Shown in pieces: positions 3,616-23,264 of a DNA stretch of 64,000 bases. Location: positions 1 to 64,000 of IMG/VR virus record IMGVR_UViG_3300013101_002049. The stretch is one strand, 5' to 3'. Position 1 is the first letter of the stretch; each line of letters begins with the position of its first letter. The notes beneath the pieces were generated by a model, which was not told where the DNA came from, did not search any database, and saw only the letters and a list, made by a program, of their open reading frames with translations. A program made the position numbers and the translations under genes. The stretch comes from a virus.

Positions 3616-3695
3616 TTTAGATTAAATATAAAAAGTTGAATTATGGATCAATGCGTTTATCGCATCCAAAACTCTTGAAGGAGGAAATAGCTATT

Positions 3696-6931: not shown

Positions 6932-7213
6932 ATGGCTGTAATATTAACTAGACGACGTAGTGGTGGTGGTTCTGGATCTTACGTAAATTTATTAATAGTT
7001 AATGAAGCTGCTGTAGGTTCTAAAAATAACTTAAATCGTATTTTTCAAACCGCTTATAACTATGTAGCTGGGACATTATCAGTTTATTATAATGGGCAGA
7101 GATTAACTAAAGACAATGATTATATGGAGCAGGATTCTAACGCATTTAGATTAGTTTATGTTAAGCCTTATAGCGATGATAATTTAGTTGTAGATTATCA
7201 AATACCTAATTAA
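6932..7213 (+). CDS. Small fibre-tip-like beta domain protein
   Basis: 93 residues, with a basic Gly-rich N-terminus (RRRSGGGSGS) and a C-terminal half LSVYYNGQRLTKDNDYMEQD, then FRLVYVKPYSDDNLVVDYQI. The C-terminal half is the common phage-fibre beta module 'V-Y-x-N-G-Q-x-L ... D-Y ... D-x-[IL]-x-x-x-Y'. The last ~70 residues of the proteins encoded at 7263-8591 and 8619-10028 have the same layout, so this gene looks like a free-standing copy of that module. Likely an appendage subunit. Confidence 0.5.
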   Translation: MAVILTRRRSGGGSGSYVNLLIVNEAAVGSKNNLNRIFQTAYNYVAGTLSVYYNGQRLTKDNDYMEQDSNAFRLVYVKPYSDDNLVVDYQIPN

Positions 7214-7262
7214 TACTTAATATTTAAGCGAGCCAAAATTCAAATAGGAGGAAGCATACAAA

Positions 7263-8591
7263 ATGGCTAGAAGTTTAATAAGGCAGTTAGAACAAATTAG
7301 GCGTTCTGCTACTTATAATGATCAGGTAGCTAACGTTACTTCTGGTACTGTAGCAGAGCCTACTGTATCTGGTTCGTTAGAGGACGACCTTAATGCTCTT
7401 CGTTCAATTATGCGTTTGACTAAGGGGTCTGCTAAATGGTATACTGATTTGGGTAATTATTTTGACCCAACTAATACTACTAGCGGAAGTGCAGAGCAGA
7501 AGGCGTTGAATCTAACTAATTTAAAGAATAACACCCTTGATGCTAAAACTGTTATTCTGGCTGTACAGGAAGACAATAGTGGAAATGGTTATACTGTTTC
7601 TGGTACTTCGACTGGTATACTACTTACAAGTGGCAATTCGACAGTTTATAATAAAGCGTATGCAACTGCGACTGATCGTACCGGTGGCTCAAGCGGTGCA
7701 CTTCCGATTTTTTCTTCTGTAAGTGGTGATTATTGGGATGAAGGTGGTGCAGATCGTGTTTGCCGTGTAGATGTGTTAAATTCATCTAATGATTCACAGA
7801 TGCAGGATACAAATGGTAATACTATTTACGCTAAGTTACATGATGGTGCCGATAATAGTGGAACTGGTGATGGTACCGATGTGTATGTGAGATTTTATGC
7901 TAATGATGCTGTATGTGACCTTTCAACTGTTACTGGTACTGTAACTTCTGTATATTTTATCGTTCCTGAACGTAGACGTATGACAGATGTTGAAGAGTAC
8001 GAATGGCAGAGAACCGATTTTGTTAGTTCTTGGGAAGGTGATGTTGAGCTTCTTGAAGATATTATGAATTTATGGAGTTATACAGGTGCAAGTGATGGTA
8101 TAGACAGTACCGCTGGTTCTTGGACTAATGCTACTGGAAATTACCCACTATCTGGTAATCCATCAGATTTACAGGCAGCTAGTGACGCATTGAATGATGC
8201 CGCTGGCGATAGAACTTATACTGAACAAAATTATGTTACAGATGCAGAAAGTTTTGCTGATTCTCTGGATGCATTGGATCAACAGGTAAAAGATAATGCT
8301 GACGCTATTGCAGCTGGTGCTGCTGATAAATATGTTGAAGAGGTTTCTGGTGATATTACGGCCGGTGTTGAGCACTCACTGCCTAATGGTTTGACTTATA
8401 CTCCTGATGCAACCGTTGGTCAAGAAGGAAGTAATATGGATGTTTATGTTGGAGGTCAGTTACTTGCTGCTGATACTGGTGCGGCTGGTGTTAATGCCGA
8501 TAGAGACTATGGTGAAACAAGTACATCTGGTATTACATTCCGCTTTAATGTACAGGACGGTAGGAATATTACCTATATGATTAGACAGTAA
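7263..8591 (+). CDS. Appendage/virion protein A of a tandem paralogous pair
   Basis: 442 residues. Layout: helical N-terminus (LIRQLEQIRRSATYNDQVAN), a segment EDDLNALRSIMRLTKGSAKW, a Ser/Thr/Gly-rich beta middle with YWDEGGADRVC, helical repeats near residue 300-365 (ALDQQVKDNADAIAAGAADK), and a C-terminal fibre beta module (MDVYVGGQLLAADTG to ITYMIRQ). The next gene has the same layout with many identical stretches, so the pair arose by tandem duplication. The helical trimer-like stalk followed by a beta tip suggests a fibre or whisker. No enzyme motif seen. Confidence 0.6.
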   Translation: MARSLIRQLEQIRRSATYNDQVANVTSGTVAEPTVSGSLEDDLNALRSIMRLTKGSAKWYTDLGNYFDPTNTTSGSAEQKALNLTNLKNNTLDAKTVILAVQEDNSGNGYTVSGTSTGILLTSGNSTVYNKAYATATDRTGGSSGALPIFSSVSGDYWDEGGADRVCRVDVLNSSNDSQMQDTNGNTIYAKLHDGADNSGTGDGTDVYVRFYANDAVCDLSTVTGTVTSVYFIVPERRRMTDVEEYEWQRTDFVSSWEGDVELLEDIMNLWSYTGASDGIDSTAGSWTNATGNYPLSGNPSDLQAASDALNDAAGDRTYTEQNYVTDAESFADSLDALDQQVKDNADAIAAGAADKYVEEVSGDITAGVEHSLPNGLTYTPDATVGQEGSNMDVYVGGQLLAADTGAAGVNADRDYGETSTSGITFRFNVQDGRNITYMIRQ

Positions 8592-8618
8592 AAAATCCAA
8601 TAAAGGAGAGTATAACAA

Positions 8619-10028
8619 ATGTCTAGAAGTCTATTAACTCAGTTAGAACAAATTAGGCGTTCAGCTACATATGATGATCAGGTAGCTGGTGCAGTTTCCG
8701 GTACTATAGCTGAGCCGACAGTCTCAGGTTCTCTTGAAGACGATCTGAACGTTTTTAGAAGTATTATGAGACTAGTTAAGGGAAGTACTAACTGGTATGA
8801 TAACATAGGTAATTATTTCGATCCAACCAATACTACTAGTGGAAGCGGTGAGACTAAATCACTGGATTTGACTAATTTAAAAAATCACAGTATGGATGCG
8901 AAAACTGTTATCGTGCCGGTAGTTTCTGACAATAGCGGCTCAGGCTATTCAGTCAGTGGTACACAAGACGGTTTCTTAATGAATATCACTACTAGTTATG
9001 CTACGGCTACTGATAGACGTGGTCTTCCTATTTATCAAAGTACTAGCGGAGATTATTGGGATGAAGGTGGTGCTTTAGATGTTTGTGCTGTGGATATTCT
9101 TAGCGTGGCTAACAACGCATCTATAACAACTAGTGGTGGGGATGTTATTTATGGATTGTTCTATGACGCCGCTGATGAAGGCGGAACTGGAACTGGTACT
9201 GATGTTTATGTTAAATTTTATGCAAATGGTTCTCCTATAGGTTTTCCAAGTGGGTATACAACTACAACTACAACTATTAGTGGTGGTTACACGCCTCCAA
9301 GTGGCGATGATGTTGATTTCGATTTTGGTGGCGGATATGTCACACCAAGTGGTAATCTTGTTAATTTTGATTTTAATGAGTATTCTACTACTGGTGGTAT
9401 TAAGGTAGTTTATCCTCATAGAAAGATAATGACTAATGTTCAGGAATATGAGTGGTTCAGAACAGATTTTATTACTAAGGTAGAAGGGGATCCAATTTTT
9501 GTTGAAGATATTAGTAATCTTTGGGGTTATACTGGAGCAGTTGATGGAGTGGAATCTACTGCTGGTAGTTGGAATGCAACTAATGGTAACTACCCGTTTG
9601 CTTCTGATCCATCAGATTTACAGATAGCTATTGATGTAATGAATACAGCTTTAGGTGACACCACGTTTACTGAAGGTAATTATATGTCGGATGGGGACAC
9701 TATAGCTTCAGGTATTAATGCATTAGATGAGCAGGTTAAAGATAATGCCGACGCTATTTCTGCAAATTTAGGTGTTAAATATACCGAAGACGTTAGTGTA
9801 ACTATCCCTAGAAATACTTTACATGGTTTGCCTGCTGGTGTTACTTATACACCTGATTCAACTGCTGGCCAGGAAGGTAAAAATATGGATGTTTACGTCA
9901 ATGGTCAATTGTTAATGGTTGATGCAAGTGGTGAATTAAGAGATTATGAAGAAACGACAACTTCTGGTGTTACATTTAGGTTTAATGTGGTAGCAGATTC
10001 AAATATAGTTTATATGGTAAGGCAATGA
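8619..10028 (+). CDS. Appendage/virion protein B of a tandem paralogous pair
   Basis: 469 residues, paralogue of the preceding gene: the N-terminus LLTQLEQIRRSATYDDQV, the stalk LDEQVKDNADAIS and the C-terminus MDVYVNGQLLMVDASG all correspond. It differs by a short insertion around residues 212-255 holding two copies of P-[PS]-G-[DN]-x-V-[DN]-FDF (GDDVDFDFGGGYVTPSGN), a low-complexity repeat seen in phage surface proteins. It ends just before a GC-rich hairpin that closes this small cluster. Probably a variant fibre subunit that can replace or pair with protein A. Confidence 0.6.
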   Translation: MSRSLLTQLEQIRRSATYDDQVAGAVSGTIAEPTVSGSLEDDLNVFRSIMRLVKGSTNWYDNIGNYFDPTNTTSGSGETKSLDLTNLKNHSMDAKTVIVPVVSDNSGSGYSVSGTQDGFLMNITTSYATATDRRGLPIYQSTSGDYWDEGGALDVCAVDILSVANNASITTSGGDVIYGLFYDAADEGGTGTGTDVYVKFYANGSPIGFPSGYTTTTTTISGGYTPPSGDDVDFDFGGGYVTPSGNLVNFDFNEYSTTGGIKVVYPHRKIMTNVQEYEWFRTDFITKVEGDPIFVEDISNLWGYTGAVDGVESTAGSWNATNGNYPFASDPSDLQIAIDVMNTALGDTTFTEGNYMSDGDTIASGINALDEQVKDNADAISANLGVKYTEDVSVTIPRNTLHGLPAGVTYTPDSTAGQEGKNMDVYVNGQLLMVDASGELRDYEETTTSGVTFRFNVVADSNIVYMVRQ

Positions 10029-10035
10029 TTAAATA

Positions 10036-10061
10036 TATAGGCGCGCTTCGGCGCGCCTATA
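10036..10061 (+). terminator. GC-rich hairpin with UUCG loop
   Basis: Positions 10036-10046 pair perfectly with 10051-10061 (11 pairs, core GGCGCGC/GCGCGCC) around the loop TTCG, an unusually stable tetraloop closed by C-G. It lies 8 bases after a stop codon in an otherwise AT-rich spacer. A short AT-rich tract follows but no clean U-run, so it may be an intrinsic terminator or an mRNA end stabiliser. Confidence 0.7.
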
Positions 10062-10093
10062 AATATTTATAGATTTAGGAGGAAAAGGTAAAA

Positions 10094-10420
10094 ATGAATA
10101 TGAATCAATTTAGAAATGTTATAGATAATGCGCGTGATAACGAAGTAATTACTAAAGAAGAAGCGGGATTTATAGTTCTGTTGGCTAAGCGATTTAGACA
10201 AGATATTGAACGGAAATCAAAGGCAATGATAGCTTTACAAGGCGAAATCGCTCAGTTAAAGGCTAATGAAAAAGTAATTATTGATATTGTGCAGAATTTA
10301 GTTGCAGCTCAACAAAGAGCTGATGACCGGTATAGGATTATGAATGATATTAAGGAAAATAAGAGTAGGAAAGGCGTGGCTGTCGTGGAGTCTGAAGAAA
10401 GTAAAGACGACAACACATAA
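10094..10420 (+). CDS. Small coiled-coil protein
   Basis: 108 residues after TAGGAGG, nearly all helical. Residues about 35-85 are a likely coiled coil (KAMIALQGEIAQLKANEK to AAQQRADDRYRIM), followed by a charged tail (VESEESKDDNT). It starts a new block after the UUCG hairpin and precedes the fibre genes. It could be a fibre chaperone or an oligomerisation partner, but no family is recognised. Confidence 0.45.
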   Translation: MNMNQFRNVIDNARDNEVITKEEAGFIVLLAKRFRQDIERKSKAMIALQGEIAQLKANEKVIIDIVQNLVAAQQRADDRYRIMNDIKENKSRKGVAVVESEESKDDNT

Positions 10421-10460
10421 TATATATATATTTTAATATCAATTAATAGAGGAACCAAAG

Positions 10461-11114
10461 ATGGCTAGAAGTCGTTTATCAGAGACACAAGTCTTCGATT
10501 CTGATTTTATGTCGGAGACCGAATATGCAGCTCAATTCACAACGATGTCTGGCCATTTGTATGATCAGATGGTATTGATTTCTGGTAGTTTGTCATATGA
10601 AATTAATGCTATTACTGATACTCTCACCAGTGGTTGTGTCCCATATTTCATTTCAGATACATTTAGTGATTCCCCAATAACAATTTCAAATATAGATATT
10701 GTGAATATTGATGGTAGTATAGAAATACTAGCTGACCCTGGAGAAAATAATAAGGGTAGAGGCGCAATAACTACTATGATTGTAGACGCTAATACATATG
10801 GTGTAGGTTCTGCTTTACATTTAGATACTGATGGCCATTGGATAGAAGCAAATGCTGAAACATCTATGCCTTGTGGGGCGCTTGCTTTAGAAGCTGGTGT
10901 TGGTAGTAAAAGAGTACTTATGCAAGGATTTATTCGTAATGATAATTGGAATTGGACTACTGTTGGTGGTCTTATTTATGTATCTTGTGTTACTGGAGAA
11001 CTTACACAAACAGCACCTAATGGATCGGGAGATTTTGTACAAATAGTGGGGCTTGCTACTCACGCCAATCGAATGTATTTTAATCCTCAATACACAATGG
11101 TAGAGATAGTTTAG
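10461..11114 (+). CDS. Tail fibre/appendage protein with shared C-terminal beta domain
   Basis: 217 residues. The N-terminal ~60 residues are helical (FMSETEYAAQFTTMSGHLYD). From about residue 95 a beta domain begins that also ends the next protein: ALALEAGVGSKRVLMQGFIR, then GGLIYVSCVTGELTQTAPNG and a VGLATHANRMYF ending. This 'G-x-K-R-V-L-x-x-G ... G-x-[IL]-Y-V-S-x-x-x-G-x-L-T ... P' layout is a recurring phage appendage module. It appears to be a minimal fibre made of an attachment helix plus a tip domain. Confidence 0.5.
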   Translation: MARSRLSETQVFDSDFMSETEYAAQFTTMSGHLYDQMVLISGSLSYEINAITDTLTSGCVPYFISDTFSDSPITISNIDIVNIDGSIEILADPGENNKGRGAITTMIVDANTYGVGSALHLDTDGHWIEANAETSMPCGALALEAGVGSKRVLMQGFIRNDNWNWTTVGGLIYVSCVTGELTQTAPNGSGDFVQIVGLATHANRMYFNPQYTMVEIV

Positions 11115-11133
11115 TTGGAGATTATAACAATCT

Positions 11134-12957
11134 ATGTGGATACTTGCGTTTTTTACAAATAACGGTGAACCAGCTTTAGGTCTTAGCCCTCTCGTTAAAG
11201 TTTTAGATGTTGAAACTGGATTGACAGTTGTTAATGACGAGAATATGACAGAGACCGGGGATGGTTTCTATAGATACAGTTTCGAAACGTATGAGCCATC
11301 ACGTGATTATGCTGTTATATGTGATAGTGTCACGCTTTCTGGATCTGAAAGGTACACCTATGCTTCAAGTGGGGAGTATGCTGAGGTACTTGATTCAATT
11401 GAATCCACTGTGGGTTTGGTAGATATACGGACTATTCTACTTAGAAAAATACAGACAAACAGATTAGAACTTTCGGACGGTGATACAGATAACTGGATAT
11501 TATATGATGACGATAAGTCTACGCCATTTTTAACATTTAGTGTTCAAGATAAATCTGGAAGTTTAATTATTCAGCAACCCCATACCCCTTCTCGCCGAGG
11601 TATGGCAGATGGGGATATTTGTGGGTCTGGCATTTCACCGAGTGTTGAGATTTATATGCGTAAGTCTGTATATGATCCTGATGATGATGGTATAGTAAGT
11701 GTAGCAGAAGGGGTTAGTGATGGTATTTATTCATCTACAGCATCTGGAATAAAATTTTCAGTTGATAATGCACATCATCCGTGTTATTTGGGAACTAAGT
11801 GTATTGATGAAAGCGGTATGGCTGATCAGTTTGTAGTTAAGTATGACGCTGCGGCTGATCGTTTAATTTATGGAGTTACAAATATTTCGGGTACTTTATC
11901 AGGTACTATACCACATCATTGGTTATTGCAATTAGATGCCGATGATCATCCACAATATATATTAGCTGATGGTACACGACCATTTTCATCTACTGTATCT
12001 GGTGTTTATCCTATTGAGGATGCACATTTAACAACAAAGCAGTATGTGGATGAACAGGTATCAACTGTAAGTGGTAATTTATCCAATAATTACTATACTA
12101 AGCAAGAGGTTCTTGATTTAATAGGTCAAAATCAGGCTGGAATAGTACCGTTAGGTTATAAAGATAATCAAACTACTGTTGTATTTAACACTGCTTTTAC
12201 TAGTGGTGAATATGCACTATTAGTTAGTCTTGATAATCAGCATGATTCAAAATCATCTGAATATGCACTGACTATAACTGATAAGACCGCAACTGGATTT
12301 ACAGTTAATTATTCTGGTAAAATTGATTCAGATAATTATGTATTAAATTGGTATGCTACATTATCTGGTGTAGCAGGCGGGGTTACTCGTACTCTATCAA
12401 ATGGTTTATTGAGGAGTATACCAGTATTACCAGAGGCTAGAAGTTTGCCAGCGGTACCTACTGGTAATTATGTTATAAATGAAATACCTGATACTTCTGG
12501 TGTATTAGAAAATGATTTAGAATTAGGAAATAATAGTATAATACTAAATACAACTCCAAGTGGATATATTACAAACGGATATATTGTTGGATGGAGCGGT
12601 GAAGTGTCTACTGTGAAGATCCAAGAGAATTTTAATGGTTTTGGCATTCCTATGCATGTTCAGCCTAACGGTAAGTTTGGAATGTGTATGGCTGCTAGTG
12701 GCATCAATCATATGCCATGCATAGCATTATCTTTGGACGAGGGAACTGGTAATAAAAGAGTACTATGGAGAGGGATAGCTAGAAAGGGATCTTGGCACTG
12801 GAAGCCGGGGAATACAATATATGTATCTACCGTTGAGGGCGCATTAACAAATAAAAAGCCGAATGATGGGTCATGGGCACAGCCAGTCGGTATAGCTATT
12901 GCTTCTGATACAATACGGTTTGATCCAGGTTTTAATGTTGGCGGAGTAAATAAATAA
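11134..12957 (+). CDS. Multi-module tail fibre protein
   Basis: 607 residues with at least four modules. 1: residues 1-135, starting MWILAFFTNNGEPALGLSP with GDGFYRYSF, shared with the protein at 21753-22241. 2: residues about 260-310, one fibre repeat (LLQLDADDHPQYILADGTRP, then HLTTKQYVDEQV). 3: residues about 335-415, a beta domain with TATGFTVNYSGKIDSDNYV resembling H-type lectins and shared with the end of the next protein. 4: residues about 480-607, the tip domain of the preceding gene (GTGNKRVLWRGIARKGSW, GNTIYVSTVEGALT). It is a mosaic fibre; the lectin-like module may bind a receptor. Confidence 0.65.
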   Translation: MWILAFFTNNGEPALGLSPLVKVLDVETGLTVVNDENMTETGDGFYRYSFETYEPSRDYAVICDSVTLSGSERYTYASSGEYAEVLDSIESTVGLVDIRTILLRKIQTNRLELSDGDTDNWILYDDDKSTPFLTFSVQDKSGSLIIQQPHTPSRRGMADGDICGSGISPSVEIYMRKSVYDPDDDGIVSVAEGVSDGIYSSTASGIKFSVDNAHHPCYLGTKCIDESGMADQFVVKYDAAADRLIYGVTNISGTLSGTIPHHWLLQLDADDHPQYILADGTRPFSSTVSGVYPIEDAHLTTKQYVDEQVSTVSGNLSNNYYTKQEVLDLIGQNQAGIVPLGYKDNQTTVVFNTAFTSGEYALLVSLDNQHDSKSSEYALTITDKTATGFTVNYSGKIDSDNYVLNWYATLSGVAGGVTRTLSNGLLRSIPVLPEARSLPAVPTGNYVINEIPDTSGVLENDLELGNNSIILNTTPSGYITNGYIVGWSGEVSTVKIQENFNGFGIPMHVQPNGKFGMCMAASGINHMPCIALSLDEGTGNKRVLWRGIARKGSWHWKPGNTIYVSTVEGALTNKKPNDGSWAQPVGIAIASDTIRFDPGFNVGGVNK

Positions 12958-12975
12958 AGGAGGAACATATAAACT

Positions 12976-14547
12976 ATGGCTAAGTTTAGAGGTAATGAAT
13001 TATATTTAGCAGATGGGCAGCGCGTTCGTTTTGGTGACCACCAAGATGCTAATATGTGGTGGGATTCAGACGCTCAGCATCCTACTACTAGTGGTGATTT
13101 ACGAGTAAATACTACTATTAGTGGCGTTGATCCTATCTATGATTATCATATAACAACTAAGAATTACGTAGACAGCGAAGTGGCCACATTAAGTGGTACT
13201 ATCCCTTATGATCATGGTGAGTTGATTGGTTTATCTGATGACGACCATATACAATATGTGCCCACGAATGGAAGTCGAGGTTTTACTGGTACCGTGTCTG
13301 GTATTGATCCTACTCAAGATTATCATTTGACCACTAAGAATTACGTAGATGGTGAAATAGATACATTAAGTGGAACTATACCATATAGTCATAGTTATTT
13401 AACGGGGCTAGATGTAGATGATCATACTCAATATTCTTTGGTAAATGGAACAAGAGCATTTACTGGAACTGTTGGTGGTATTTATCCGACAGCTACAAAC
13501 CATTTGACTACTAAGGAATATGTAGATCAATTAGTTCAAGGATTAGATTGGCAAGATTCGGTATTAGATTTTTCATTAGCTGTTTCTGGTGTTGCTGTAG
13601 AGGGTAATAGATATATTGCTCTTGATACTAGTGGCAATTGGACAGAAGATTATATTATGGAGTACACTGGTACCGCATGGAGCGGTACAGCGCCTAATGA
13701 AGGCTTTGCTACATGGGTTGAAGATGAAGATGCTTTATATGTGTATAATGGGTCAGATTGGGTAAAATTTGGTAGTACTATTACACATAATAATTTGAAT
13801 GGATTACAAGGTGGTACTTCTGATGAATATTATCATTTAACTTCAACTATGTACACTGATTTAACTAGTGCTGGTGGAGTTGGTAATGCTAGCTCGGAGC
13901 ATATCCATGATGATAGGTACTATACTGAGTCAGAGGTTGACACTATTAGTGGAGCGCTTTCAAGTGAAATTGATGCTGATATAGCCGCTCATGCTGCTAT
14001 TTCAAGTGCTCACCATGTTAGATATACTGATGAAGAGGCCCAAGATGCTGTTGGTAATATCATGAGTGGCGCATCGTTTGTAACTGTTACATATAATGAT
14101 ATTGCTAATACTATTACTATTAGTGGTTCGGCTTCAGCTATAGATCATGGTTATTTATCAGGATTAGAGGATGATGATCATACACAGTATATATTGGTTG
14201 ATGGGACTAGGGGTTTTACTGCTACTGTATCTGGTGTTTATCCTACTGAAGATTATCATTTAGCTACTAAGTCATATGTTGATGCAGCCATTATTTCTGG
14301 CACTATTGACAGGCATGGTAGATCAGGCCCTATTACTTATAAAGCTTCACAATGGACTGTTAATTTTGCAGATTTAGGACATACTGATTATACAGTGAAT
14401 GTTACTATGGAAAATACAGCTGATTCACCGCCTTCTATTTATTCCTATATTATTAGTGCTAGAACATCTAGTAGTTTTACAGTTGATTTTTCTGGTAAGA
14501 TGGATTCATCTAATTATTATTTAGATTGGAATATTATAGAAGACTAA
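12976..14547 (+). CDS. Tail fibre protein with DDDHxQY repeats
   Basis: 523 residues after AAGGAGGA. The N-terminus (MAKFRGNELYLADGQRVRFG) matches that of the next gene. The body holds repeats of about 55 residues with HGxLxGLxDDDHxQY, then an FTxTVSG strand, then HLTTKxYVD; clear copies begin near residues 76, 133 and 394. A further segment, HDDRYYTESEVDTISG, lies between. The last ~75 residues form the lectin-like domain seen inside the 607-residue protein (SSSFTVDFSGKMDSSNYYLD). The repeats form the fibre shaft in many phage proteins of this type. Likely a receptor-binding or decorating fibre. Confidence 0.65.
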   Translation: MAKFRGNELYLADGQRVRFGDHQDANMWWDSDAQHPTTSGDLRVNTTISGVDPIYDYHITTKNYVDSEVATLSGTIPYDHGELIGLSDDDHIQYVPTNGSRGFTGTVSGIDPTQDYHLTTKNYVDGEIDTLSGTIPYSHSYLTGLDVDDHTQYSLVNGTRAFTGTVGGIYPTATNHLTTKEYVDQLVQGLDWQDSVLDFSLAVSGVAVEGNRYIALDTSGNWTEDYIMEYTGTAWSGTAPNEGFATWVEDEDALYVYNGSDWVKFGSTITHNNLNGLQGGTSDEYYHLTSTMYTDLTSAGGVGNASSEHIHDDRYYTESEVDTISGALSSEIDADIAAHAAISSAHHVRYTDEEAQDAVGNIMSGASFVTVTYNDIANTITISGSASAIDHGYLSGLEDDDHTQYILVDGTRGFTATVSGVYPTEDYHLATKSYVDAAIISGTIDRHGRSGPITYKASQWTVNFADLGHTDYTVNVTMENTADSPPSIYSYIISARTSSSFTVDFSGKMDSSNYYLDWNIIED

Positions 14548-14563
14548 ATTTAAGGTGTAAAAT

Positions 14564-14908
14564 ATGGCAAGAATAAAAGGTAGAGATATATATTTAGAGA
14601 ATGACGACCAGATTTATTTTGGCGATAATCAAGAAGCTGCTATGTGGTATGGAGCAGATGGTGAACTCCATCTGAACCATACCATTAGTGGTGTTGAACC
14701 AACGTCAGCTTACCATTTAACTACTAAACATTATGTTGATGATGTAATACTTTTAACAACAGGATTTCCATTATATTATATAAAATCTACAGTAAGTTTA
14801 CAGGTGCCTGATTGGGGGCAGTATGTGATACATGAAACTGGATATTTAGAAGTAGCAGGCACTATTGAATTTGGAGAAGGTGGAATGTTAATAATACAAG
14901 GAGTATAA
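14564..14908 (+). CDS. Short fibre paralogue, one repeat only
   Basis: 114 residues. The N-terminal 40 residues (MARIKGRDIYLENDDQIYFG) match the N-terminus of the 523-residue fibre, followed by half a shaft repeat (ISGVEPTSAYHLTTKHYVDD) and then a short beta tip (LEVAGTIEFGEGGMLIIQG). It looks like the same attachment domain joined directly to a small tip, perhaps an alternative or collar-type fibre. It could also be the remnant of a deletion, but start, stop and ribosome binding site are intact. Confidence 0.55.
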   Translation: MARIKGRDIYLENDDQIYFGDNQEAAMWYGADGELHLNHTISGVEPTSAYHLTTKHYVDDVILLTTGFPLYYIKSTVSLQVPDWGQYVIHETGYLEVAGTIEFGEGGMLIIQGV

Positions 14909-14910
14909 TT

Positions 14911-17900
14911 ATGGCAAACGCAGGTAAAATAATACTACCATATGGTGATATGAATGAAACACCAAGTACTGGTAAAGTGGCATTTTATGCCAAGAATAAA
15001 ACTGAATTATATTATAGAGATGATGATGGTGTAGACCATTTAATAACAGCGTCTGGGACTGGTGGTGTTACTGACCACGGTGATCTGACAGGATTATCTG
15101 ATGATGATCATCTACAATATCATACTGATGCTCGTGGTGATGCTAGGTATTATACAGAGATCGAAATTGATACCACTTTGTCTGGTTATTCTCAAATTGG
15201 ACATACCCATATTGAGTCTAATATTACTAATTTGGATAAATATACACAGGTAGAAGTTAATACTATATCTGGTGTGTTACAGACGCAGATAGATAATATA
15301 ACTGTTAGTGGTGCCACAACATTTATAGATCTTGCTGACACCCCTAATGTATATGCTGATGGTAGAAATTATTTATTAAGGGCTACTACATCAGGTATAG
15401 AATATCATTTTTTAGGTCATAATAATCATTTAGTTTGTGTATCAGCTGATAGAGGAACATCTGATGGTGATGGTAGCACCATATTTCCTGTTAGTAGTAT
15501 AGATGAAGCTATAACTCATATAGAAAGCATTGCTGTGTCTGGTACTAATTATGTTATAAATTTATTACCAGGGGTATATGAAGTAGATAGTTTAAATATA
15601 AACAATTATAATGTTGTGTCTATAGTAGGTGAATGTAGTGAAGCTACTATTATTAAACCTGTAAGTAATACTCCAAATACATTTATTACTATTCCATATA
15701 CTACATCTTTAAAATCTATTACTATTGATGCTACTGATTACCCCTCATTAGCAACGGCTTCTGGATCCATAGGTATAGATGTGCGAGATGATAGTTATAA
15801 TGAGGTTGTTTTTAGTGATGTATATATAAGAGGTTTTGGAACAAATTTAAATACTGATGCAAAATCTAATATTTATTTATTTAATTGTGATTTTAGATAT
15901 TCTAATGTTGGTATAAAAGCTGCTGCTGGAGCTATGATTGATGCTGACATTCTTTTTGTAGATGAATGTTATGATAAACATATTCATGCGCTTGGCGGAG
16001 CAGAGGTTTATTTAGCAAACACAGAAATTTGCTCTATGGATACGTTAAGTGGTACTGGATTATATGTAGAAGGTGCTGATACCAATGTTGAAATTTTCAG
16101 CGGAACTAATATTTGGAGTTGTGATAAAGATATAGTTGTAAAAGACACAGCAACTGTTAGAGTTGATAATTGTATTTTGGAAGAGTCGGAATCTAGGCCA
16201 ACTATTGAACAAAAAGATACTTCTACATTAATTATAATAAATTCAAGAGCGCCTTTAGATAATGAAAGTTTTGTTGTAGAAGATTCTACTAGTGTATATG
16301 TGAATGCTTATGATCTTGATGAACAAATAACTTCAATAGGAAATAGATCTGGTCAAGATCAATCACTTATAAATATAATTAATGGTAGTACAGAAAGACC
16401 TAATCTTGGTTATATACATGATAGTTGTGGTACTTATAGGTCATTAGGTTGGTCAATACCTACAGATGGCGAAGATGCCGCATTTTATACACAAGCAAAT
16501 AATGGTAATGCTAGACTTTGTTGCCATTCTATTGGGGAAAGTGCGTGGGATAAAAAGGCTGAAGTTGTTTTAATGTCTGATCAATCTACAGTAAAAAGAG
16601 GTTGGTTTATAAGAAAAGAATCTGGTGCTACACCACGGCTACTTTTAGAATACATAGATGGAACAAGAGCTTTGTATGCTAATTATGATGGTTCTATAAC
16701 ATTATGCTCCGGAGTTTCTGTTGATAAAATTTTAGACGAAGATGATTTTGCATCTAATGATGCGTCAGCTTTGTCTACACAACAGGCTATTAAATCTTTT
16801 ATAGATACGGTATCTGGATCTATAGATAACAATATTTTATATGCTGATGGTAGTAAAGAGTTGATCGCTGATTGGGATGTTGGTGATTATTCTATAACTG
16901 CTGATGGATTTAGAAAAGATAATATGGAGATAGAGTTATCTCCTTATTCAAATTCTACTGGTATATTATCTGGTGGAGATTTATCTATAAATAGTTCTAA
17001 TCCATATATGATAGATGTTACATCAGGCACCGCACTATATGTCGATGTAACTGATTCATCATTTCCTATTGTGGAAAAATTATCTTGGCCGTCTCAAAGT
17101 ATTAGTGGCTCATTAGATGGTAGTTTTTATAAGTGGTTAGGTGTTTATAGATCTTCGTCTAAAACCGGTGATTTAGTCATAGGTACAAATTTTTCGCATT
17201 TAGAACGTAGAACTACGGCAGTTTTAGGTAAATATTGGTCAACTATTTCTGGATCTGATCAAATTACTAATGTCGCAAATTATACAACTACTGGTTATGG
17301 AAGTGCTAAAACACTTGAAGATTTTATTGATGCTTACGGTGTGTTGAATATAGAAGGCAATAGATATTCAGCTTCTTTAATAACACCTATGACTTTGGCA
17401 AGAACTGCTGGCCAAGCTTTTAGAAGAGGAGCTAATAGATCTGCTCAACCTACAAGCCCTAATATATATGAGTCATCAGCTGATGATTCAATTTCATCTT
17501 ATTATTATCAAATTTCTAATAGTTATGATTATACTGTTAAAAATGTGATAGATCCAAATTACTATGATTTAAATGGTGTATTACTTCCTGTTCCTACTGG
17601 AAAATGGACAGTTCAAAGACTTTATTATTTTCCAGTTTCTAATGTAACAGTTATTTATTGGGGGCAACATTATTATGATTCTGATACGCAAGCCTATGAT
17701 GGTGTTTCTAAAGATACATTTGACAGCTTACCTAATGCAATAGAAGGCGCAGTTTTACGAGGTTATTTGATAGTAAAACAAGGAGCTACTGATTTAACAA
17801 ATTCAAATCAAGCGGTTATTTATACTACTTATGGACGTGATGGTATTTTGCCTGGTTTTTCAGATCATGGTGCGTTAGGTGGGTTAGATGATGATGACCA

Positions 17901-20349
17901 TTTACAATACCACACTGATGCTCGTGGTGATGCTAGATATTATACTCAAAATCAAGTGGATACATTAAGTGGTACTTTATCACAATCTGAGAACATTGAT
18001 TACACAAATACAAATTGGTCTCTTACTGATGTTGGAACAGCATTGGATAATTTAACTGATTATGTTGAGAACACACATGGAACTGGAAGGATTAGTCCTA
18101 TTGAAACAACTATTTCTGGATTTTTACAATCCACATTATATATAAATGCTGGTGAGGGTTATATAAATTATGATGGTCTACATAAAAAAGTTACGTGGCC
18201 ATATGAAGAAATAGATGTATCTGGTTATGTTACAGGTATCCATTATGTGTATATAGATTATAATGGAGATAGTCATATAACCACTACCTATCCAGGTACC
18301 TCAGCTAATATTTTGTTGGGATCTTTTTATTTTACTGGCAGTGATGTTATAGGACTTACTCAAACATGTGGTTGTGTTTTAGAAAACTTTTTTAATAGAA
18401 TAATTGATTATATGTTTAATTTAGGTGTATTTTTAACTTCTGATAGTGGATTAATACAAGTTGCTTCTGGTGTTGATAATACAAGAATAACATCACCTGT
18501 ATGTTCTGCTCAGTATGGTACTTCAATAATAGATTTACCAGAAAGAGGAAGTGATGATGCTGTTATAGGTAATTTTTTAGCAATATTTACATATAATGAT
18601 GGTGTAATGAATAGTTGTGATTATTTTAATTCTTCTGTTGGTTGGAATGGTTCTCTTCCTATAAATAGATGGAATAATACAACTAGTTATTCTGGCACAT
18701 TATTATCATCTGGAACATGTACCTTCACGCAATATTCTGATACAGTTTCAGTGTCTGGTACTACTGGTGATATGGAAATAGGTGATTTTATTTGGTATGG
18801 TGGGGATGCCTGTGATTATCAAACGCCTATTATAGATATAACTGGTAATACAATTACATTAGACGCTATATATATGGGTTCTGGTGGGACCGGTCACGCT
18901 CGTATAGAAAAATCTTTACCATTGATACCCGATGGTAAATGGGCTAAACATTTAATAGGAAGAACATTAGATGGAAATATGCAATTTATATTTTCTCAGA
19001 ATTATTTTGATTCTGAAGAGGACGCTAACAATGCTGGATGTCCTGTCATACCATCAATTATAGAGCAGGGCGGTATAAAAATGGCGTATGTGGTTTGTTC
19101 TGGTACAGAAACTGATATTTCTAATTGTTTAATAGATATACGGCCATTACCATTTCATGATAGAGAGGGTGGTAGTCAGACAGGTGGAATCGCTACAGAT
19201 CATGGTGATTTGACTGGTTTAGCTGATGACGACCACAGACAATATATTTTATCTAATGGTTCAAGAAATTTTGTTTCAAAAGTTAAATATGAATTTCATC
19301 CAAGTTTTTCAACTGATACTGATATAGTTGATAAGAAATATGTTGACGATCACCAATTTGATCACGGTGGTTTAGCTGGATTAAGTGATGACGATCATAC
19401 ACAGTATTTTAATCAAGCCCGAGGTGATGCTAGATATTTTACTCAAGAAGCTGCTGCTGTTATTTCTGGAACATTACAAACTCAGATAGATGGTAAATCT
19501 GATACAGGCCATACTCATACTGAATCAGACGTAACAAATTTGGATAAATACACACAAGCTGAAGTTACCACAATTTCAGGAAATATTGTAGATCAAATAC
19601 CTTCAAATTTTGATGATAGATATTATACTGAAACAGAATTAGACAATGGTCAATTGGATAATAGATATTATACTGAAGCTGAAATAGATGATACTTTATC
19701 TAGTGGAACATCAGTTAAACTTCAAGATGAAGGTGGAGACGTTACTAATACACCTCATAGTAGATTGAATTTTACTGGTGTGGGTGTAACAGTTTCAGAT
19801 GCTGGATCTGGTGTTGCAACTATTAATATTCCAGCAGCTTCTGGAGGAATAATTGTTAAAGACGAAGGGACTACGGTGTCTGGTGGTCCTCATAATACTG
19901 TGGATTTTATAGGTCAAATGGTAACTGCCACTGATGCTGGTGGTGGAGAAGTTACAGTAGATATTCCCTATCCAACTTTTGGTACTTATTATGGGTGGGG
20001 TGGGGATACTAGTGCACAATCTACTAATTCAACTAGCTGGGTACAAGCTGTACGCGTAAATGTTCCTTCTATACCTGATTCTTATTTTAGGGTAGGTTGG
20101 TATTTTGAATGGCGCAGAAATACAGCATCTAATGATTTTAAAGCACAAGTTCAAATAGACGATACAGAAACTATAATGTCTATGAATGAAGAAAGTAAAG
20201 ATGTAAATTCTTGGCACCCAGCTAGTGGTTTCGCTATATTGGATTTAAGCACTGGTACGCATACAATAGATGTTGATTTTGCCGGTGAAACTACTGGAAA
20301 TACTAGTTATATAAGAAACATAAGAATAGAATATTGGAGGGTATCATAA
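14911..20349 (+). CDS. Giant tail fibre with beta-helix domain
   Basis: 1812 residues. N-terminal shaft repeat near residue 55 (DHGDLTGLSDDDHLQYHTDA, then ARYYTEIEID). Residues about 170-450 look like a right-handed parallel beta-helix of the pectate-lyase type (INLLPGVYEVDSLNINNYN, many short strands, ANTEICSMDTLSGTGLYVEG). More shaft repeats begin near residues 985, 1430 and 1484, with two copies of a GHTH-[IT]-ES segment. The C-terminal ~130 residues form a beta-sandwich tip (YYGWGGDTSAQSTNSTSW onward). A beta-helix can cleave or bind polysaccharide; I see no assured catalytic residues, so depolymerase activity is only possible. Its stop overlaps the next start by one base. Confidence 0.7.
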   Translation: MANAGKIILPYGDMNETPSTGKVAFYAKNKTELYYRDDDGVDHLITASGTGGVTDHGDLTGLSDDDHLQYHTDARGDARYYTEIEIDTTLSGYSQIGHTHIESNITNLDKYTQVEVNTISGVLQTQIDNITVSGATTFIDLADTPNVYADGRNYLLRATTSGIEYHFLGHNNHLVCVSADRGTSDGDGSTIFPVSSIDEAITHIESIAVSGTNYVINLLPGVYEVDSLNINNYNVVSIVGECSEATIIKPVSNTPNTFITIPYTTSLKSITIDATDYPSLATASGSIGIDVRDDSYNEVVFSDVYIRGFGTNLNTDAKSNIYLFNCDFRYSNVGIKAAAGAMIDADILFVDECYDKHIHALGGAEVYLANTEICSMDTLSGTGLYVEGADTNVEIFSGTNIWSCDKDIVVKDTATVRVDNCILEESESRPTIEQKDTSTLIIINSRAPLDNESFVVEDSTSVYVNAYDLDEQITSIGNRSGQDQSLINIINGSTERPNLGYIHDSCGTYRSLGWSIPTDGEDAAFYTQANNGNARLCCHSIGESAWDKKAEVVLMSDQSTVKRGWFIRKESGATPRLLLEYIDGTRALYANYDGSITLCSGVSVDKILDEDDFASNDASALSTQQAIKSFIDTVSGSIDNNILYADGSKELIADWDVGDYSITADGFRKDNMEIELSPYSNSTGILSGGDLSINSSNPYMIDVTSGTALYVDVTDSSFPIVEKLSWPSQSISGSLDGSFYKWLGVYRSSSKTGDLVIGTNFSHLERRTTAVLGKYWSTISGSDQITNVANYTTTGYGSAKTLEDFIDAYGVLNIEGNRYSASLITPMTLARTAGQAFRRGANRSAQPTSPNIYESSADDSISSYYYQISNSYDYTVKNVIDPNYYDLNGVLLPVPTGKWTVQRLYYFPVSNVTVIYWGQHYYDSDTQAYDGVSKDTFDSLPNAIEGAVLRGYLIVKQGATDLTNSNQAVIYTTYGRDGILPGFSDHGALGGLDDDDHLQYHTDARGDARYYTQNQVDTLSGTLSQSENIDYTNTNWSLTDVGTALDNLTDYVENTHGTGRISPIETTISGFLQSTLYINAGEGYINYDGLHKKVTWPYEEIDVSGYVTGIHYVYIDYNGDSHITTTYPGTSANILLGSFYFTGSDVIGLTQTCGCVLENFFNRIIDYMFNLGVFLTSDSGLIQVASGVDNTRITSPVCSAQYGTSIIDLPERGSDDAVIGNFLAIFTYNDGVMNSCDYFNSSVGWNGSLPINRWNNTTSYSGTLLSSGTCTFTQYSDTVSVSGTTGDMEIGDFIWYGGDACDYQTPIIDITGNTITLDAIYMGSGGTGHARIEKSLPLIPDGKWAKHLIGRTLDGNMQFIFSQNYFDSEEDANNAGCPVIPSIIEQGGIKMAYVVCSGTETDISNCLIDIRPLPFHDREGGSQTGGIATDHGDLTGLADDDHRQYILSNGSRNFVSKVKYEFHPSFSTDTDIVDKKYVDDHQFDHGGLAGLSDDDHTQYFNQARGDARYFTQEAAAVISGTLQTQIDGKSDTGHTHTESDVTNLDKYTQAEVTTISGNIVDQIPSNFDDRYYTETELDNGQLDNRYYTEAEIDDTLSSGTSVKLQDEGGDVTNTPHSRLNFTGVGVTVSDAGSGVATINIPAASGGIIVKDEGTTVSGGPHNTVDFIGQMVTATDAGGGEVTVDIPYPTFGTYYGWGGDTSAQSTNSTSWVQAVRVNVPSIPDSYFRVGWYFEWRRNTASNDFKAQVQIDDTETIMSMNEESKDVNSWHPASGFAILDLSTGTHTIDVDFAGETTGNTSYIRNIRIEYWRVS

Positions 20350-21014
20350 TGTCTATGTATGAATATGTAAAAAGTATTGTTGATATTGATAGATTATCAT
20401 ATGAAATAGGAGAATCTGTAAATATAGTTACTGAGTTAGATTATATTACTTATAACAGCAGTTCTACTATATTACGTATTTATTTTATTGGTGATTTGTC
20501 AAATGACGAAGAAGTTACTTTAAATGATATTGTTACAAACCATGGTGGTCAACAACTGCCACAGACACCGGAGATATTAGCGACTACAGGTATTGATAGA
20601 TCATATACTCTATTTGCTGATGGTGAAAATAGTGCCGTATGGCTTCCAGCTAAAGAATATATTTTTACTTTTAAATCAGGATATAGAGGCGTGATTACTG
20701 ATTATGTGAAGATATATAGAAATACGATATGGACTTCTTGTGCTACTTTTATATTTAAAGGTAATCTATTTACACCAGTTTCTACATTTAAAATATGCGC
20801 CTGGGTTGGTGGATCAAAAGATCTTGGTTATGTTAGATTATATGATTATTACAACAATAAAGAAATATGTGAAGTAAAGGTGAGTAACGAAAAGAAATAT
20901 ATTTATACTTTGGAAACTCTTTATAATATACCAGATAACGAAACAATTTTTGAAATACATGGTATGGTAAAGCCAAGTAGTAAATTATATTTATCGTATG
21001 TTACTTTATATTAG
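20349..21014 (+). CDS. Hypothetical appendage protein
   Basis: Start set at ATG 20349, which overlaps the previous stop and follows GGAGGG; a TTG five codons upstream is less likely. 222 residues, mostly beta, rich in Tyr, Ile and Ser, with no recognised motif. Being coupled to the giant fibre gene, it may be its chaperone or a partner subunit. Confidence 0.45.
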   Translation: MSMYEYVKSIVDIDRLSYEIGESVNIVTELDYITYNSSSTILRIYFIGDLSNDEEVTLNDIVTNHGGQQLPQTPEILATTGIDRSYTLFADGENSAVWLPAKEYIFTFKSGYRGVITDYVKIYRNTIWTSCATFIFKGNLFTPVSTFKICAWVGGSKDLGYVRLYDYYNNKEICEVKVSNEKKYIYTLETLYNIPDNETIFEIHGMVKPSSKLYLSYVTLY

Positions 21015-21027
21015 GAGGATATAAATA

Positions 21028-21753
21028 ATGACGGACGTATATAAATATAGATTATATTGTGAAACAGAAGATTTGTGGGTAGAAACATGGGCTGAAAATA
21101 CCCCACAATATTGTCCTAATAATAATACTCATACTATAGTATCAGGGTCTATCACTATAATAGATAGTAAATTAGATGAAGGTCCTACAGTATTAGACGA
21201 TGGTCGTCCTATAGTTAGATCTGATAGCCGCCCATTAAATCATTATACTTATTTTACTATGGTTGGTGATTCTGAAACTGATATTGGTAATGGTAAAGTA
21301 ATGTTTTGGGATTTTTCTAATGACGATGATATTGTAACTACTAGTGGTGTAGTTCCAGATGGATATAAGATGAAAAGAATAATAATGAAATTCGTAGATC
21401 CTGTGTATATGAAAGAAGGTACTAATTATTTTTTCAGCGCTTTAAAAGGATCATATGTCACCTTTTCTATTGTATGTCCACAAGGGCAATACTATTTGAA
21501 CTATGATGGAACTCCCGCATACGCGTCCGATGACGTAGTGATAGTTAGATATGTGAATAAACATTATTTTAGTGGTGATTGTCCTATGGGTGATGAATTA
21601 AATACTGAAGGTTGTGCTGAAAACGCTATGCCTTCTAATTATGAATTATGGATTGAGGTATTTGTTCCAGAAAATGATAATTCAAGTTATGGTTATGGTG
21701 AATTAGAATTATATAGATTAAGAACTTGTTTGAGACCAGGAGATACAGTATAA
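21028..21753 (+). CDS. Appendage protein with C-terminal beta domain
   Basis: 241 residues after TAGGAGG. The N-terminus YKYRLYCETEDLWVETWAEN, followed by PQYCPNNNTHTIV, is a small module (C ... P-x-x-CP-x-N-x-x-HTI) that I have seen in other phage fibre-associated proteins. The rest is beta-rich with several Cys. The stop codon overlaps the next start. Role inferred from context: a fibre or base-plate associated protein. Confidence 0.45.
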   Translation: MTDVYKYRLYCETEDLWVETWAENTPQYCPNNNTHTIVSGSITIIDSKLDEGPTVLDDGRPIVRSDSRPLNHYTYFTMVGDSETDIGNGKVMFWDFSNDDDIVTTSGVVPDGYKMKRIIMKFVDPVYMKEGTNYFFSALKGSYVTFSIVCPQGQYYLNYDGTPAYASDDVVIVRYVNKHYFSGDCPMGDELNTEGCAENAMPSNYELWIEVFVPENDNSSYGYGELELYRLRTCLRPGDTV

Positions 21754-22241
21754 TGACTTGGGTTGTAGCATATTTTGAAAGACAAGGAGAACCTGCTATT
21801 AATTTAAATCCAGTAATTAGAATACGATATGTGGAAACTGGTAGTATAGTAGCTGAAGATGTTATGGATGAAGTTGGCAGCGGTTTTTATAAATTTAATT
21901 TTCACAGTTATGATATGACTAAAGACTATACTATGTTAGCCGATGGTGGTATTAGTTTAATACAAAGAGATCGATTTCTTGAAGGTGCTACTGGTGAATA
22001 CGGAGATATTTCTAGTAATATTTATTTAATGTCTGATAATATTGGTTGTAGAATTTTGTTAATGAAAAAACTTTTTGAAAATAAATTAGAATTGGAGAAT
22101 GGAGATCAAGATAATTGGATATTATATGATGATGATGGTGTTACGCCATTATTAGTTTATGATGCAAGTGATGTAAATGGTGATGATATTTATCAAATCA
22201 CTGGAATGGTTTCAAAAAGGTCAAAAGCGAAGGAAGGATAA
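21753..22241 (+). CDS. Fibre attachment-domain protein
   Basis: Start set at ATG 21753, overlapping the previous TAA; the upstream TTG at 21726 lies inside the previous gene. 162 residues. It corresponds to the N-terminal module of the 607-residue fibre: WVVAYFERQGEPAINLNP, VETGSIVAEDVMDEVGSGFY, an AxGxYxD segment and LENGDQDNWILYDDDGVTP. In the large fibre this module is followed by shaft and tip; here it stands alone, so it may be an adaptor that anchors other fibre chains to the virion. Confidence 0.55.
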   Translation: MTWVVAYFERQGEPAINLNPVIRIRYVETGSIVAEDVMDEVGSGFYKFNFHSYDMTKDYTMLADGGISLIQRDRFLEGATGEYGDISSNIYLMSDNIGCRILLMKKLFENKLELENGDQDNWILYDDDGVTPLLVYDASDVNGDDIYQITGMVSKRSKAKEG

Positions 22242-22245
22242 TAAC

Positions 22246-22713
22246 TTGAGTAATATATCAGTATGGGGATGGGGAGCAACCACAATTTCTGTTTGGGGAT
22301 GGGGCACACCTCACCATGAATATATTCCAATAATTTTAGCAGCTTTTATAGAAAGCCATGCCTATACATGTGTTTTAACTAGGGATTATGTAGAAGTATT
22401 AGTTCGTGAAACCGGTGAAATTGCTTTAAGACTTCGTCCAGATCAAATTCCACAAAGAGGTTATGGTGAAGTATTAAGTAGAATGAGGGAGGGTGATTTA
22501 TTAGTTAGAGCCCGACCAGATCAGATTCCAGAAAGAGATTATATTGAAGTTGTAAAACGATTACGAGAGGGAGATGTTGTATTGAGGGTACGTCCAGATC
22601 AAATACCAGTCAGAGAACGCGGAGACATTATTAGTAGGGTTGTAGATGAAGTTACTGCAAGGAGCAAGGGCTGGCCTTGGCAGGAAGATCCGTGTTTGGA
22701 TGACGAGGAATAG
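22246..22713 (+). CDS. Short tandem-repeat protein (RPDQIP repeats)
   Basis: Start set at TTG 22246, 7 bases after AAGGAAGGA; longer in-frame starts lie inside the previous gene. 156 residues. The N-terminus has two ISVWGWG copies. The body has three ~31-residue repeats with RPDQIPxR followed by G/D-Y-x-EV and R-x-REGD, the last degenerate, and a Trp/Asp-rich tail (GWPWQEDPC). No family recognised. The regular spacing suggests a small repeat shaft or a binding protein. It is the last gene of the fibre block. Confidence 0.5.
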   Translation: MSNISVWGWGATTISVWGWGTPHHEYIPIILAAFIESHAYTCVLTRDYVEVLVRETGEIALRLRPDQIPQRGYGEVLSRMREGDLLVRARPDQIPERDYIEVVKRLREGDVVLRVRPDQIPVRERGDIISRVVDEVTARSKGWPWQEDPCLDDEE

Positions 22714-22724
22714 AGAGGAAGCTT

Positions 22725-23264
22725 ATGGCTAGAAATCGAAAAATAGGCTCAAAAGCCAAGAAACGATGGAAGCAATCTATGACAAGGCTCATAGATGGTT
22801 TAGGCCGTCGTATTATTATTTATTTGCCAGATAGACGGGCAGAATGTCCAAATTGTTATTATGATAAAGTACATGACAAGAGTTCTGGTGTGTGCAAGGC
22901 AAACCCCTCTAGCCCTAATTACTTTACCCATGGACGGTGCCCAGTTTGTAGTGGTAAAGGTGTGATAACTACTTCTCGTAGAAAATGTATACAAGGTATA
23001 GTTATTTGGAATCCTCAAGGTAATGCTACTAATAATTTAACTTTTAGTGAAGCCGGTATGGAAGGAGCAACGTCGGTAGAAATAAAAACTGATGTATGTT
23101 ATTTAGATTTAATTAAAATATCTAAATATGTCATAATTGACGGAATAAAGTGTAAATTATCTAACCCGCCTATAATTAGAGGAATAGGTGGTAAATCTGT
23201 TTTGATAGCTGCTTTTATCACTATGGATAAACCAAGGAGAGGTAGCGGTGAATACGTCAATTAA
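22725..23264 (+). CDS. Head-tail joining protein with zinc ribbon (head closure candidate)
   Basis: 179 residues. The N-terminus is basic (MARNRKIGSKAKKRWKQS). Cys41-Pro-Asn-Cys44 and Cys72-Pro-Val-Cys75 form a four-cysteine zinc ribbon. The C-terminal half (DLIKISKYVIIDGIKCKLS, then IRGIGGKSVLIAAFITMD) is a small beta-barrel-like segment as in head-closure (stopper) proteins, which define a position such as 'I-D-G-x-x-Y/C'. It opens the neck gene group and its end overlaps the next start. The function is inferred mainly from gene order. Confidence 0.5.
   Translation: MARNRKIGSKAKKRWKQSMTRLIDGLGRRIIIYLPDRRAECPNCYYDKVHDKSSGVCKANPSSPNYFTHGRCPVCSGKGVITTSRRKCIQGIVIWNPQGNATNNLTFSEAGMEGATSVEIKTDVCYLDLIKISKYVIIDGIKCKLSNPPIIRGIGGKSVLIAAFITMDKPRRGSGEYVN

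What the first reader, a model, noticed from the sequence alone, without database searches (positions are those of the whole stretch)
6932..22713. Modular shuffling in a 16-kb appendage block
The same modules recur in different combinations: attachment domain (11134 and 21753 genes), tip domain (10461 and 11134), lectin-like domain (11134 and 12976), FRGNELYL-type N-terminus (12976 and 14564), DDDHxQY shaft repeat (11134, 12976, 14911), GQ-L tip (6932, 7263, 8619). This looks like an actively recombining host-range region.
Basis: seen in the sequence. Interest (0 to 1): 0.6.

Follow-up and report, generated by a model that had tools for sequence, protein, structure and literature searches.

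The report
Phage fibre genes with swapped tips
A long-tailed virus of bacteria known only from metagenomes carries a row of fibre genes whose probable docking ends stay put while the probable receptor-binding tips have been exchanged with related viruses, a real and well-supported case of a common way in which phages vary what they can attach to.

Summary
Five of the six shared modules are real at protein level. The sixth is not: the GQ-L tip of the 6932 gene is not statistically detectable, and 7263/8619 are simply full-length tandem paralogues. Within this genome the repeated modules are old, and the attachment and tip copies keep their own gene positions across relatives, so recurrence inside the genome does not itself show active shuffling. 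Comparison with relatives does show exchange. The closest contig with the whole block (G002, capsid protein 98% identical) is collinear with the window at 82-96% DNA identity from 0.35 to 11.94 kb. Identity drops abruptly at a DDDHPQY shaft codon and recovers at about 21.75 kb. In between, tips are exchanged (the 21028 tip groups with other phages, AU p = 2e-6), sit on another gene, or are absent. The likely mechanism is homologous recombination between co-infecting relatives through conserved N-termini, shafts and flanking genes. The phage encodes RecA; no reverse transcriptase, invertase or integrase was found. A new member of a well-known kind of mosaic receptor-binding locus.

The parts
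5993..6913 (+). Conserved left flank gene (306 aa); 92% aa to G002, 89% to G003
7263..10028 (+). Two full-length tandem paralogues (442 and 469 aa, 54% identical); conserved between sisters (94% and 91% to G002), lacking from the block in several relatives
10461..11114 (+). 217-aa protein with TIP domain (10461-type); 85% to its G002 counterpart, so not exchanged between sisters
11134..11607 (+). ATT adaptor (attachment domain), first-position copy, 92% aa to G002
11940..12076 (+). Left junction of the variable block: DNA identity to G002 falls from about 86% to background at the DDDHPQY shaft codons (11941)
12139..12357 (+). LEC: H-type-lectin-like domain of the 11134 protein (aa 336-408)
12490..12933 (+). 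TIP domain of the 11134 protein (aa 453-600); no closer to the sister (58%) than to distant relatives (54-57%)
12976..14547 (+). Second fibre: FRG adaptor, three DDHxQY shaft sites, DUF2793-like domain, LEC tip (aa 452-519) that groups with G017, not with the sister
14564..14908 (+). 114-aa FRG protein without a recognised tip; the counterpart in G002 (400 aa) carries CT14
14911..20349 (+). 1812-aa long fibre: own N-terminus, four shaft sites, a middle shared with G002 at 54%, CT14 tip (19972-20343)
20349..21014 (+). 226-aa (TTG start 20334) or 221-aa (ATG 20349) protein: N20 adaptor plus C20 tip; in G002 an N20 adaptor heads the 1965-aa long fibre instead and C20 was not found
21028..21753 (+). 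M21 protein; tip groups with G017/G052, and the sister G002 is excluded (AU p 2.3e-6)
21753..22241 (+). Stand-alone ATT protein, last-position copy; DNA identity to G002 recovers at about its start (85% aa)
22177..23264 (+). Conserved right flank genes (22177 and 22725), 89-90% aa to G002

Best explanation
The 11.9-21.8 kb block is a multi-gene receptor-binding locus of an uncultivated long-tailed phage lineage. Most of its proteins join an N-terminal adaptor (ATT, FRG or N20), which probably docks on the virion, to a shaft (often with DDDHxQY repeats) and one of several C-terminal tips, some lectin-like, which probably bind host surface glycans. Adaptors and flanking genes are mostly inherited vertically and hold their places. 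The tips, and whole genes, are replaced by homologous recombination with co-infecting relatives, which is tolerated at conserved N-termini, shafts and flanking genes; the phage's own RecA could drive it. Shown: shared modules, sharp junctions, tip incongruence, tips on different genes, variable gene number. Inferred: RecA as the agent, the docking and receptor-binding roles, and the effect on host range.
For: Sharp two-sided identity drop between sisters, 82-96% outside and partial or no match inside, with the left edge in a shaft codon. Backbone W-G002 85-99% aa but M21 44% (65% to G017 and G052), CT14 44% (54% to G030) and 12976 LEC 65% (77% to G017). AU rejects W+G002 for M21 (p 2.3e-6) and for the 12976 LEC (p 0.008), while both ATT copies keep W+G002 (99/98 and 100/100). 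CT14 and N20 sit on different genes in the two sisters. Three N-termini and two tip subtypes occur in four combinations in the M21 gene. Exact 86-bp tandem shaft duplication in G002 at the junction. Second and third pairs, G024/G051 and G030/G039, also vary in this locus. RecA in the genome (E 4e-79). H-type-lectin-like fold of LEC, also found in pyocin fibre and tailspike tips.
Against: Only one close sister spans the block. AU tests for TIP, CT14, N20 and the 11134 LEC do not reject the sister grouping, so exchange is not proven for those. The middle of the long fibre is shared with G002 at 54% only, which divergence could also give. No reads, no host, no binding data; the tip models are poor except LEC.
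Confidence: 0.85

Rival explanations
1. The tips are vertical orthologues that simply evolve very fast under selection from the host; no exchange is needed.
For: Parts of the block (13.4-14.5 kb and 16.9-18.0 kb) remain collinear with G002 at about 74-76% DNA identity; several tip trees do not reject vertical descent.
Against: M21 and the 12976 LEC group with phages whose backbone is far more distant (AU p 2.3e-6 and 0.008). CT14 and N20 sit on different genes, and C20 is absent from G002. Divergence does not explain a drop within one shaft repeat.
Confidence: 0.08
2. A dedicated diversity generator (diversity-generating retroelement, or site-specific inversion of fibre ends) creates the variation.
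For: Such systems are known to vary phage fibres (general knowledge).
Against: No reverse transcriptase, serine recombinase or tyrosine integrase in the 150-kb record. The only inverted repeats in the region are three short imperfect ones (18-20 nt); all the fibre genes point the same way. The changes are whole domains and genes, not point changes in a short region. Caveat: the record may be incomplete.
Confidence: 0.03
3. Gene conversion driven by homing endonucleases at the cassette edges is the main engine of exchange.
For: In G029 a gene next to the ATT gene has a weak HNH match (Pfam HNH_3, E 0.001, below the curated cut-off), and G053 has an extra 202-aa gene directly after ATT2 that looks HNH-like by eye but had no Pfam match.
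Against: No such gene was seen inside the block of the window or of G002, the pair that shows the clearest exchange; endonucleases and inteins also occur elsewhere in this genome.
Confidence: 0.08
4. The junctions are metagenome assembly chimeras.
For: All contigs come from metagenomes, and repeats invite misjoins.
Against: Identity returns to about 88% on both sides of the block. Independent pairs G024/G051 and G030/G039 also differ in this locus. Frames are intact with ribosome-binding-like sites, and near-exact repeats in the window are too short to explain it (longest 65 bp at 88%).
Confidence: 0.04

Closest known systems
Domain mosaicism of phage receptor-binding proteins (Smug et al. 2023, PMC10684548)
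   Same: Near-identical N-termini with non-homologous or strongly diverged C-terminal binding domains in close relatives; reported for tail fibres and neck passage structures.
   Different: Here several adaptor classes in one operon-like block exchange tips in parallel, in a lineage without a match among deposited phages by capsid protein.
Ackermannviridae tailspike cluster TSP1-TSP4 (PMC8432352)
   Same: Several adjacent receptor-binding genes with preserved N-terminal docking domains and exchangeable C-terminal modules, with a conserved motif proposed as the recombination point; the shaft motif could play that part here.
   Different: No vriC or XD/TD homology was tested; the adaptors here (ATT, FRG, N20) gave no known family match, and branching of the fibres is not shown.
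Phage tail repeat like, Pfam PTR (PF12789)
   Same: The 1812-aa fibre passes the PTR cut-off (33.7 against 27 bits), best stretch at the last DDDHxQY shaft site.
   Different: The other shaft-bearing genes did not reach this family.
H-type lectin fold (Helix agglutinins, discoidin; pyocin fibre and tailspike tips)
   Same: Fold of the LEC domain by Foldseek; weak Pfam Gp53-like_C match, E 0.001, below the cut-off.
   Different: No sequence relation shown; sugar binding untested.
Neck passage structures of lactococcal phages (PMC6669499, PMC10684548)
   Same: Variable carbohydrate-binding virion proteins; the gene position here, between capsid and tail genes, would suit a neck or head appendage.
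   Different: No sequence link was tested; the virion location here is unknown.

Membership tests
Mosaic (modular) receptor-binding locus | N-terminus conserved between close relatives while the C-terminus is exchanged | tested here: met
   ATT 92% and adjoining aa 170-247 90% against TIP/LEC 58% and M21 44% between sisters; junction at a shaft codon
Mosaic (modular) receptor-binding locus | Tip phylogeny in conflict with backbone phylogeny | tested here: met
   M21 AU p 2.3e-6, 12976 LEC p 0.008; not significant for TIP, CT14, N20 and the 11134 LEC
Mosaic (modular) receptor-binding locus | Proteins bind a host receptor | not testable with these tools
   Only the lectin-like fold of LEC points to it
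Ackermannviridae-type branched tailspike cluster | XD/TD docking domains related to T4 gp10 | not tested
   Adaptors gave no Pfam or strong PHROG match and no PDB sequence match for ATT; no structural test of the adaptors succeeded
Diversity-generating retroelement | Reverse transcriptase in the genome | tested here: not met
   PF00078 absent from the 150-kb record, positive in controls; record may be incomplete
Invertase-driven fibre switching | Site-specific recombinase with inverted sites at fibre ends | tested here: not met
   PF00239 and PF00589 absent; no long inverted repeats
H-type lectin fold | Same fold over the domain | tested here: inconclusive
   Probability up to 1.00 and TM-score (target) 0.44-0.55 to snail agglutinins, but E-values 0.05-0.3
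Neck passage structure | Located at the head-tail neck of the virion | not testable with these tools
   Only gene position is known: between the head gene and the tape measure gene

The most novel reading that the evidence does not exclude
The locus is an expandable docking rack: adaptor classes in a conserved order, bracketed in several genomes by two attachment-domain proteins, into which tips and whole genes are slotted or from which they are lost (from an ATT protein alone in G029 to the full set here). Homing endonucleases lodged at its edge in some relatives (G029, perhaps G053) would help drive lateral spread of the cassette.
Probability: 0.2. Interest if true: 0.5.

Novelty: new member of a known kind. 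Interest (0 to 1): 0.33.

Why it matters
It gives a well-resolved natural example, in a phage lineage without deposited relatives, of which parts of a multi-fibre system stay fixed (adaptors, flanks) and which are exchanged (tips). That makes the adaptor classes usable as markers to find fibre tips in metagenomes and pair them with hosts. It also corrects a tempting inference: repeats inside one genome are not by themselves evidence of active shuffling; sister comparison is.

Tried and rejected
No near DNA match in deposited phages, and no tblastn match for the capsid protein or the 11134 protein, so the comparison rests on IMG/VR contigs. PDB sequence searches of the 11134 and attachment-domain alignments, the long fibre and 8619 gave nothing credible: neuroserpin and a stress protein at E 0.004-0.11. 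AlphaFold of the whole 11134 protein failed outside LEC (mean pLDDT 36). The M21 model (pLDDT 53) gave only generic beta-sandwich matches, mostly viral capsids, judged not informative. Reverse transcriptase, invertase and integrase searches were negative. The GQ-L link for 6932 was tested with single sequence and profile and rejected. Genome-contig hits for the capsid protein lie in MAGs named Geobacteraceae, WOR-3 and Fermentibacteria; binning does not identify a host, so none is claimed.

Full report
What the window is. The window is the first 64 kb of a 150,128-bp IMG/VR virus record. The gene at 3636 is a major head protein (PHROG 2522, E 1e-15), and the 7531-aa frame at 28607-51202 is a tape measure protein (PHROG 4211, E 1e-77), so the finding lies between the head gene and the tail genes. 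Deposited phages have no near DNA match to the block and no tblastn match to the capsid protein or the 11134 protein. IMG/VR has many relatives: 186 stretches encode the capsid protein, the best at 98%.

Checking the observation. Blastp among the window's own proteins confirms the attachment, tip, lectin-like and FRGNELYL modules (E 7e-37 to 2e-18). The DDHxQY shaft motif is confirmed, 8 copies against 0.003 expected in shuffled proteins. The 6932 gene's GQ-L similarity is not detectable, and 7263/8619 are full-length tandem paralogues (54%), not a shared tip. At DNA level the copies inside this genome are mostly 60-75% alike, the best stretch being 65 bp at 88%, so the duplications are not recent.

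Are the internal repeats active shuffling? For the attachment domain, the first-gene copies (with the lone copy of G029) form one clade of ten (100/99) that excludes all last-gene copies. For the tip, the 10461-type and 11134-type copies fall into separate groups. These pairs are therefore old duplications that keep their positions.

Is the region recombining? Yes. G002 (IMGVR_UViG_3300040801_001718; capsid protein 98% identical) is collinear with the window at 88.5% over 11.7 kb, and at 86% again from 21.58 kb. In 500-bp steps identity is 82-96% up to 12.0 kb, partial or absent between 12.0 and 22 kb, and 86-90% from 22 kb. The left junction falls in the codons of the DDDHPQY shaft. There G002 has an exact 86-bp direct repeat of the shaft, a trace of recent repeat-mediated change. 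Against G003 (capsid 98%), the left part up to its contig end at window position 9.7 kb is collinear at about 83% apart from an insertion just after the capsid gene. So the 6932-11.9 kb part is not the variable part among these close relatives.

Exchange or fast divergence? Backbone proteins link the window to G002 at 85-99%, but several tips do not. The 21028 (M21) tip is 65% to G017 and G052 and 44% to G002. The tree places the window with G017/G052 and G002 with G053, and AU rejects window+G002 (p 2.3e-6). The 12976 lectin-like domain groups with G017 (AU p 0.0077). AU tests for TIP, CT14, N20 and the 11134 LEC (two pairings) are not significant, so exchange is not proven for them. Seven such tests were run: M21 survives any correction, while the 12976 LEC is borderline after it.

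Rearrangement between genes. The CT14 tip ends the 1812-aa fibre here. In G002 it ends the preceding FRG-type protein, while the long fibre ends in another tip family, shared with G052 and G030. The N20 adaptor heads a 226-aa protein here and the 1965-aa long fibre in G002. In the M21 gene three N-termini and two tip subtypes occur in four combinations. Gene number varies: between the left and right flank genes G029 has only a 161-aa attachment protein and an HNH-like gene. G051 goes straight from the second fibre to ATT2, where its roughly 80%-identical relative G024 has three more fibre genes. In deeper relatives (G030, G038, G039) the fibre genes lie before rather than after the left flank gene.

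How it most likely works. Shown: conserved adaptors and flanks, shared shafts, exchanged or relocated tips. Inferred: homologous recombination during co-infection between relatives, using the flanks, adaptor regions and shafts as matching sequence. The phage encodes its own RecA (E 4e-79), which is consistent but not proof. No reverse transcriptase, serine recombinase or tyrosine integrase was found in the 150-kb record, which may be incomplete. The receptor-binding role is inferred from architecture and from the fold of the lectin-like domain, whose best matches are pyocin fibre and tailspike tips and H-type lectins, at weak E-values. Whether the appendages sit on tail, neck or head is open: the gene position between head and tail genes would also suit neck or head fibres.

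Known or new. Conserved N-termini with exchanged C-terminal binding domains are well documented (PMC10684548), including clusters of tailspikes with preserved docking domains (PMC8432352). The lineage and its adaptor families have no named counterpart as far as these tools show, but the kind of system is known. Hence a modest interest score.

Noticed in passing
window 28607-51202 (+): A single 7531-aa frame is a tape measure protein (PHROG 4211, E 1e-77) with an N-terminal exonuclease-like domain (PHROG 192, E 1e-13; Pfam RNase_T, E 4e-7). It is longer than the 5,002-residue tape measure of P23-45, which carries a fused RNA polymerase (PMC10770324), and at about 0.15 nm per residue (general rule) would imply a tail over 1 micrometre. 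Relatives G017 (at least 7152 aa) and G038 (at least 5842 aa) have similarly long frames.
   Followed up: partly
G000 about 105-123 kb (L099:1094-19359): A run of co-directional genes that look like surface-glycan biosynthesis: glycosyltransferases, UDP-GlcNAc 2-epimerase (E 6e-92), GFO/IDH oxidoreductase, hexapeptide acyltransferase, PfkB kinase, cytidylyltransferase-like. It could alter the host surface that the fibres bind.
   Followed up: partly
L099:2244-4691 and L100:3688-6891: Inteins in a glycosyltransferase gene (with LAGLIDADG) and in the ribonucleotide reductase gene (with HNH) of this phage.
   Followed up: no
L114:6160-7059 (G029), L164:7128-7736 (G053): Extra genes directly after the attachment-domain gene at the cassette edge: the one in G029 has a weak HNH match (E 0.001), the one in G053 looks HNH-like by eye but has no Pfam match.
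   Followed up: partly
G052 and G053 capsid gene; G053 24782-type gene: The capsid gene is split by about 1.1-1.2 kb inserts in both, and the 24782-type tail gene by about 1.1 kb in G053, possibly introns.
   Followed up: no
G000 145966-147972 (L101:1966-3972): A 668-aa protein near the contig end shares the N-terminal module of the 7263/8619 pair (profile E 2e-6), so that adaptor also occurs far outside the block.
   Followed up: partly
window 25-307: About 270 bp at the contig start match at least seven places in the upstream part of G002 at 66-72% DNA identity: a repeated element or repeated protein domain of unknown nature.
   Followed up: no
L098:6386-10453 (G000 about 90.4-94.5 kb): A 1355-aa protein with five concanavalin-A-like lectin domains (Laminin_G_3, E 2e-82) and DUF2341: further adhesin-like genes outside the finding.
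   Followed up: no
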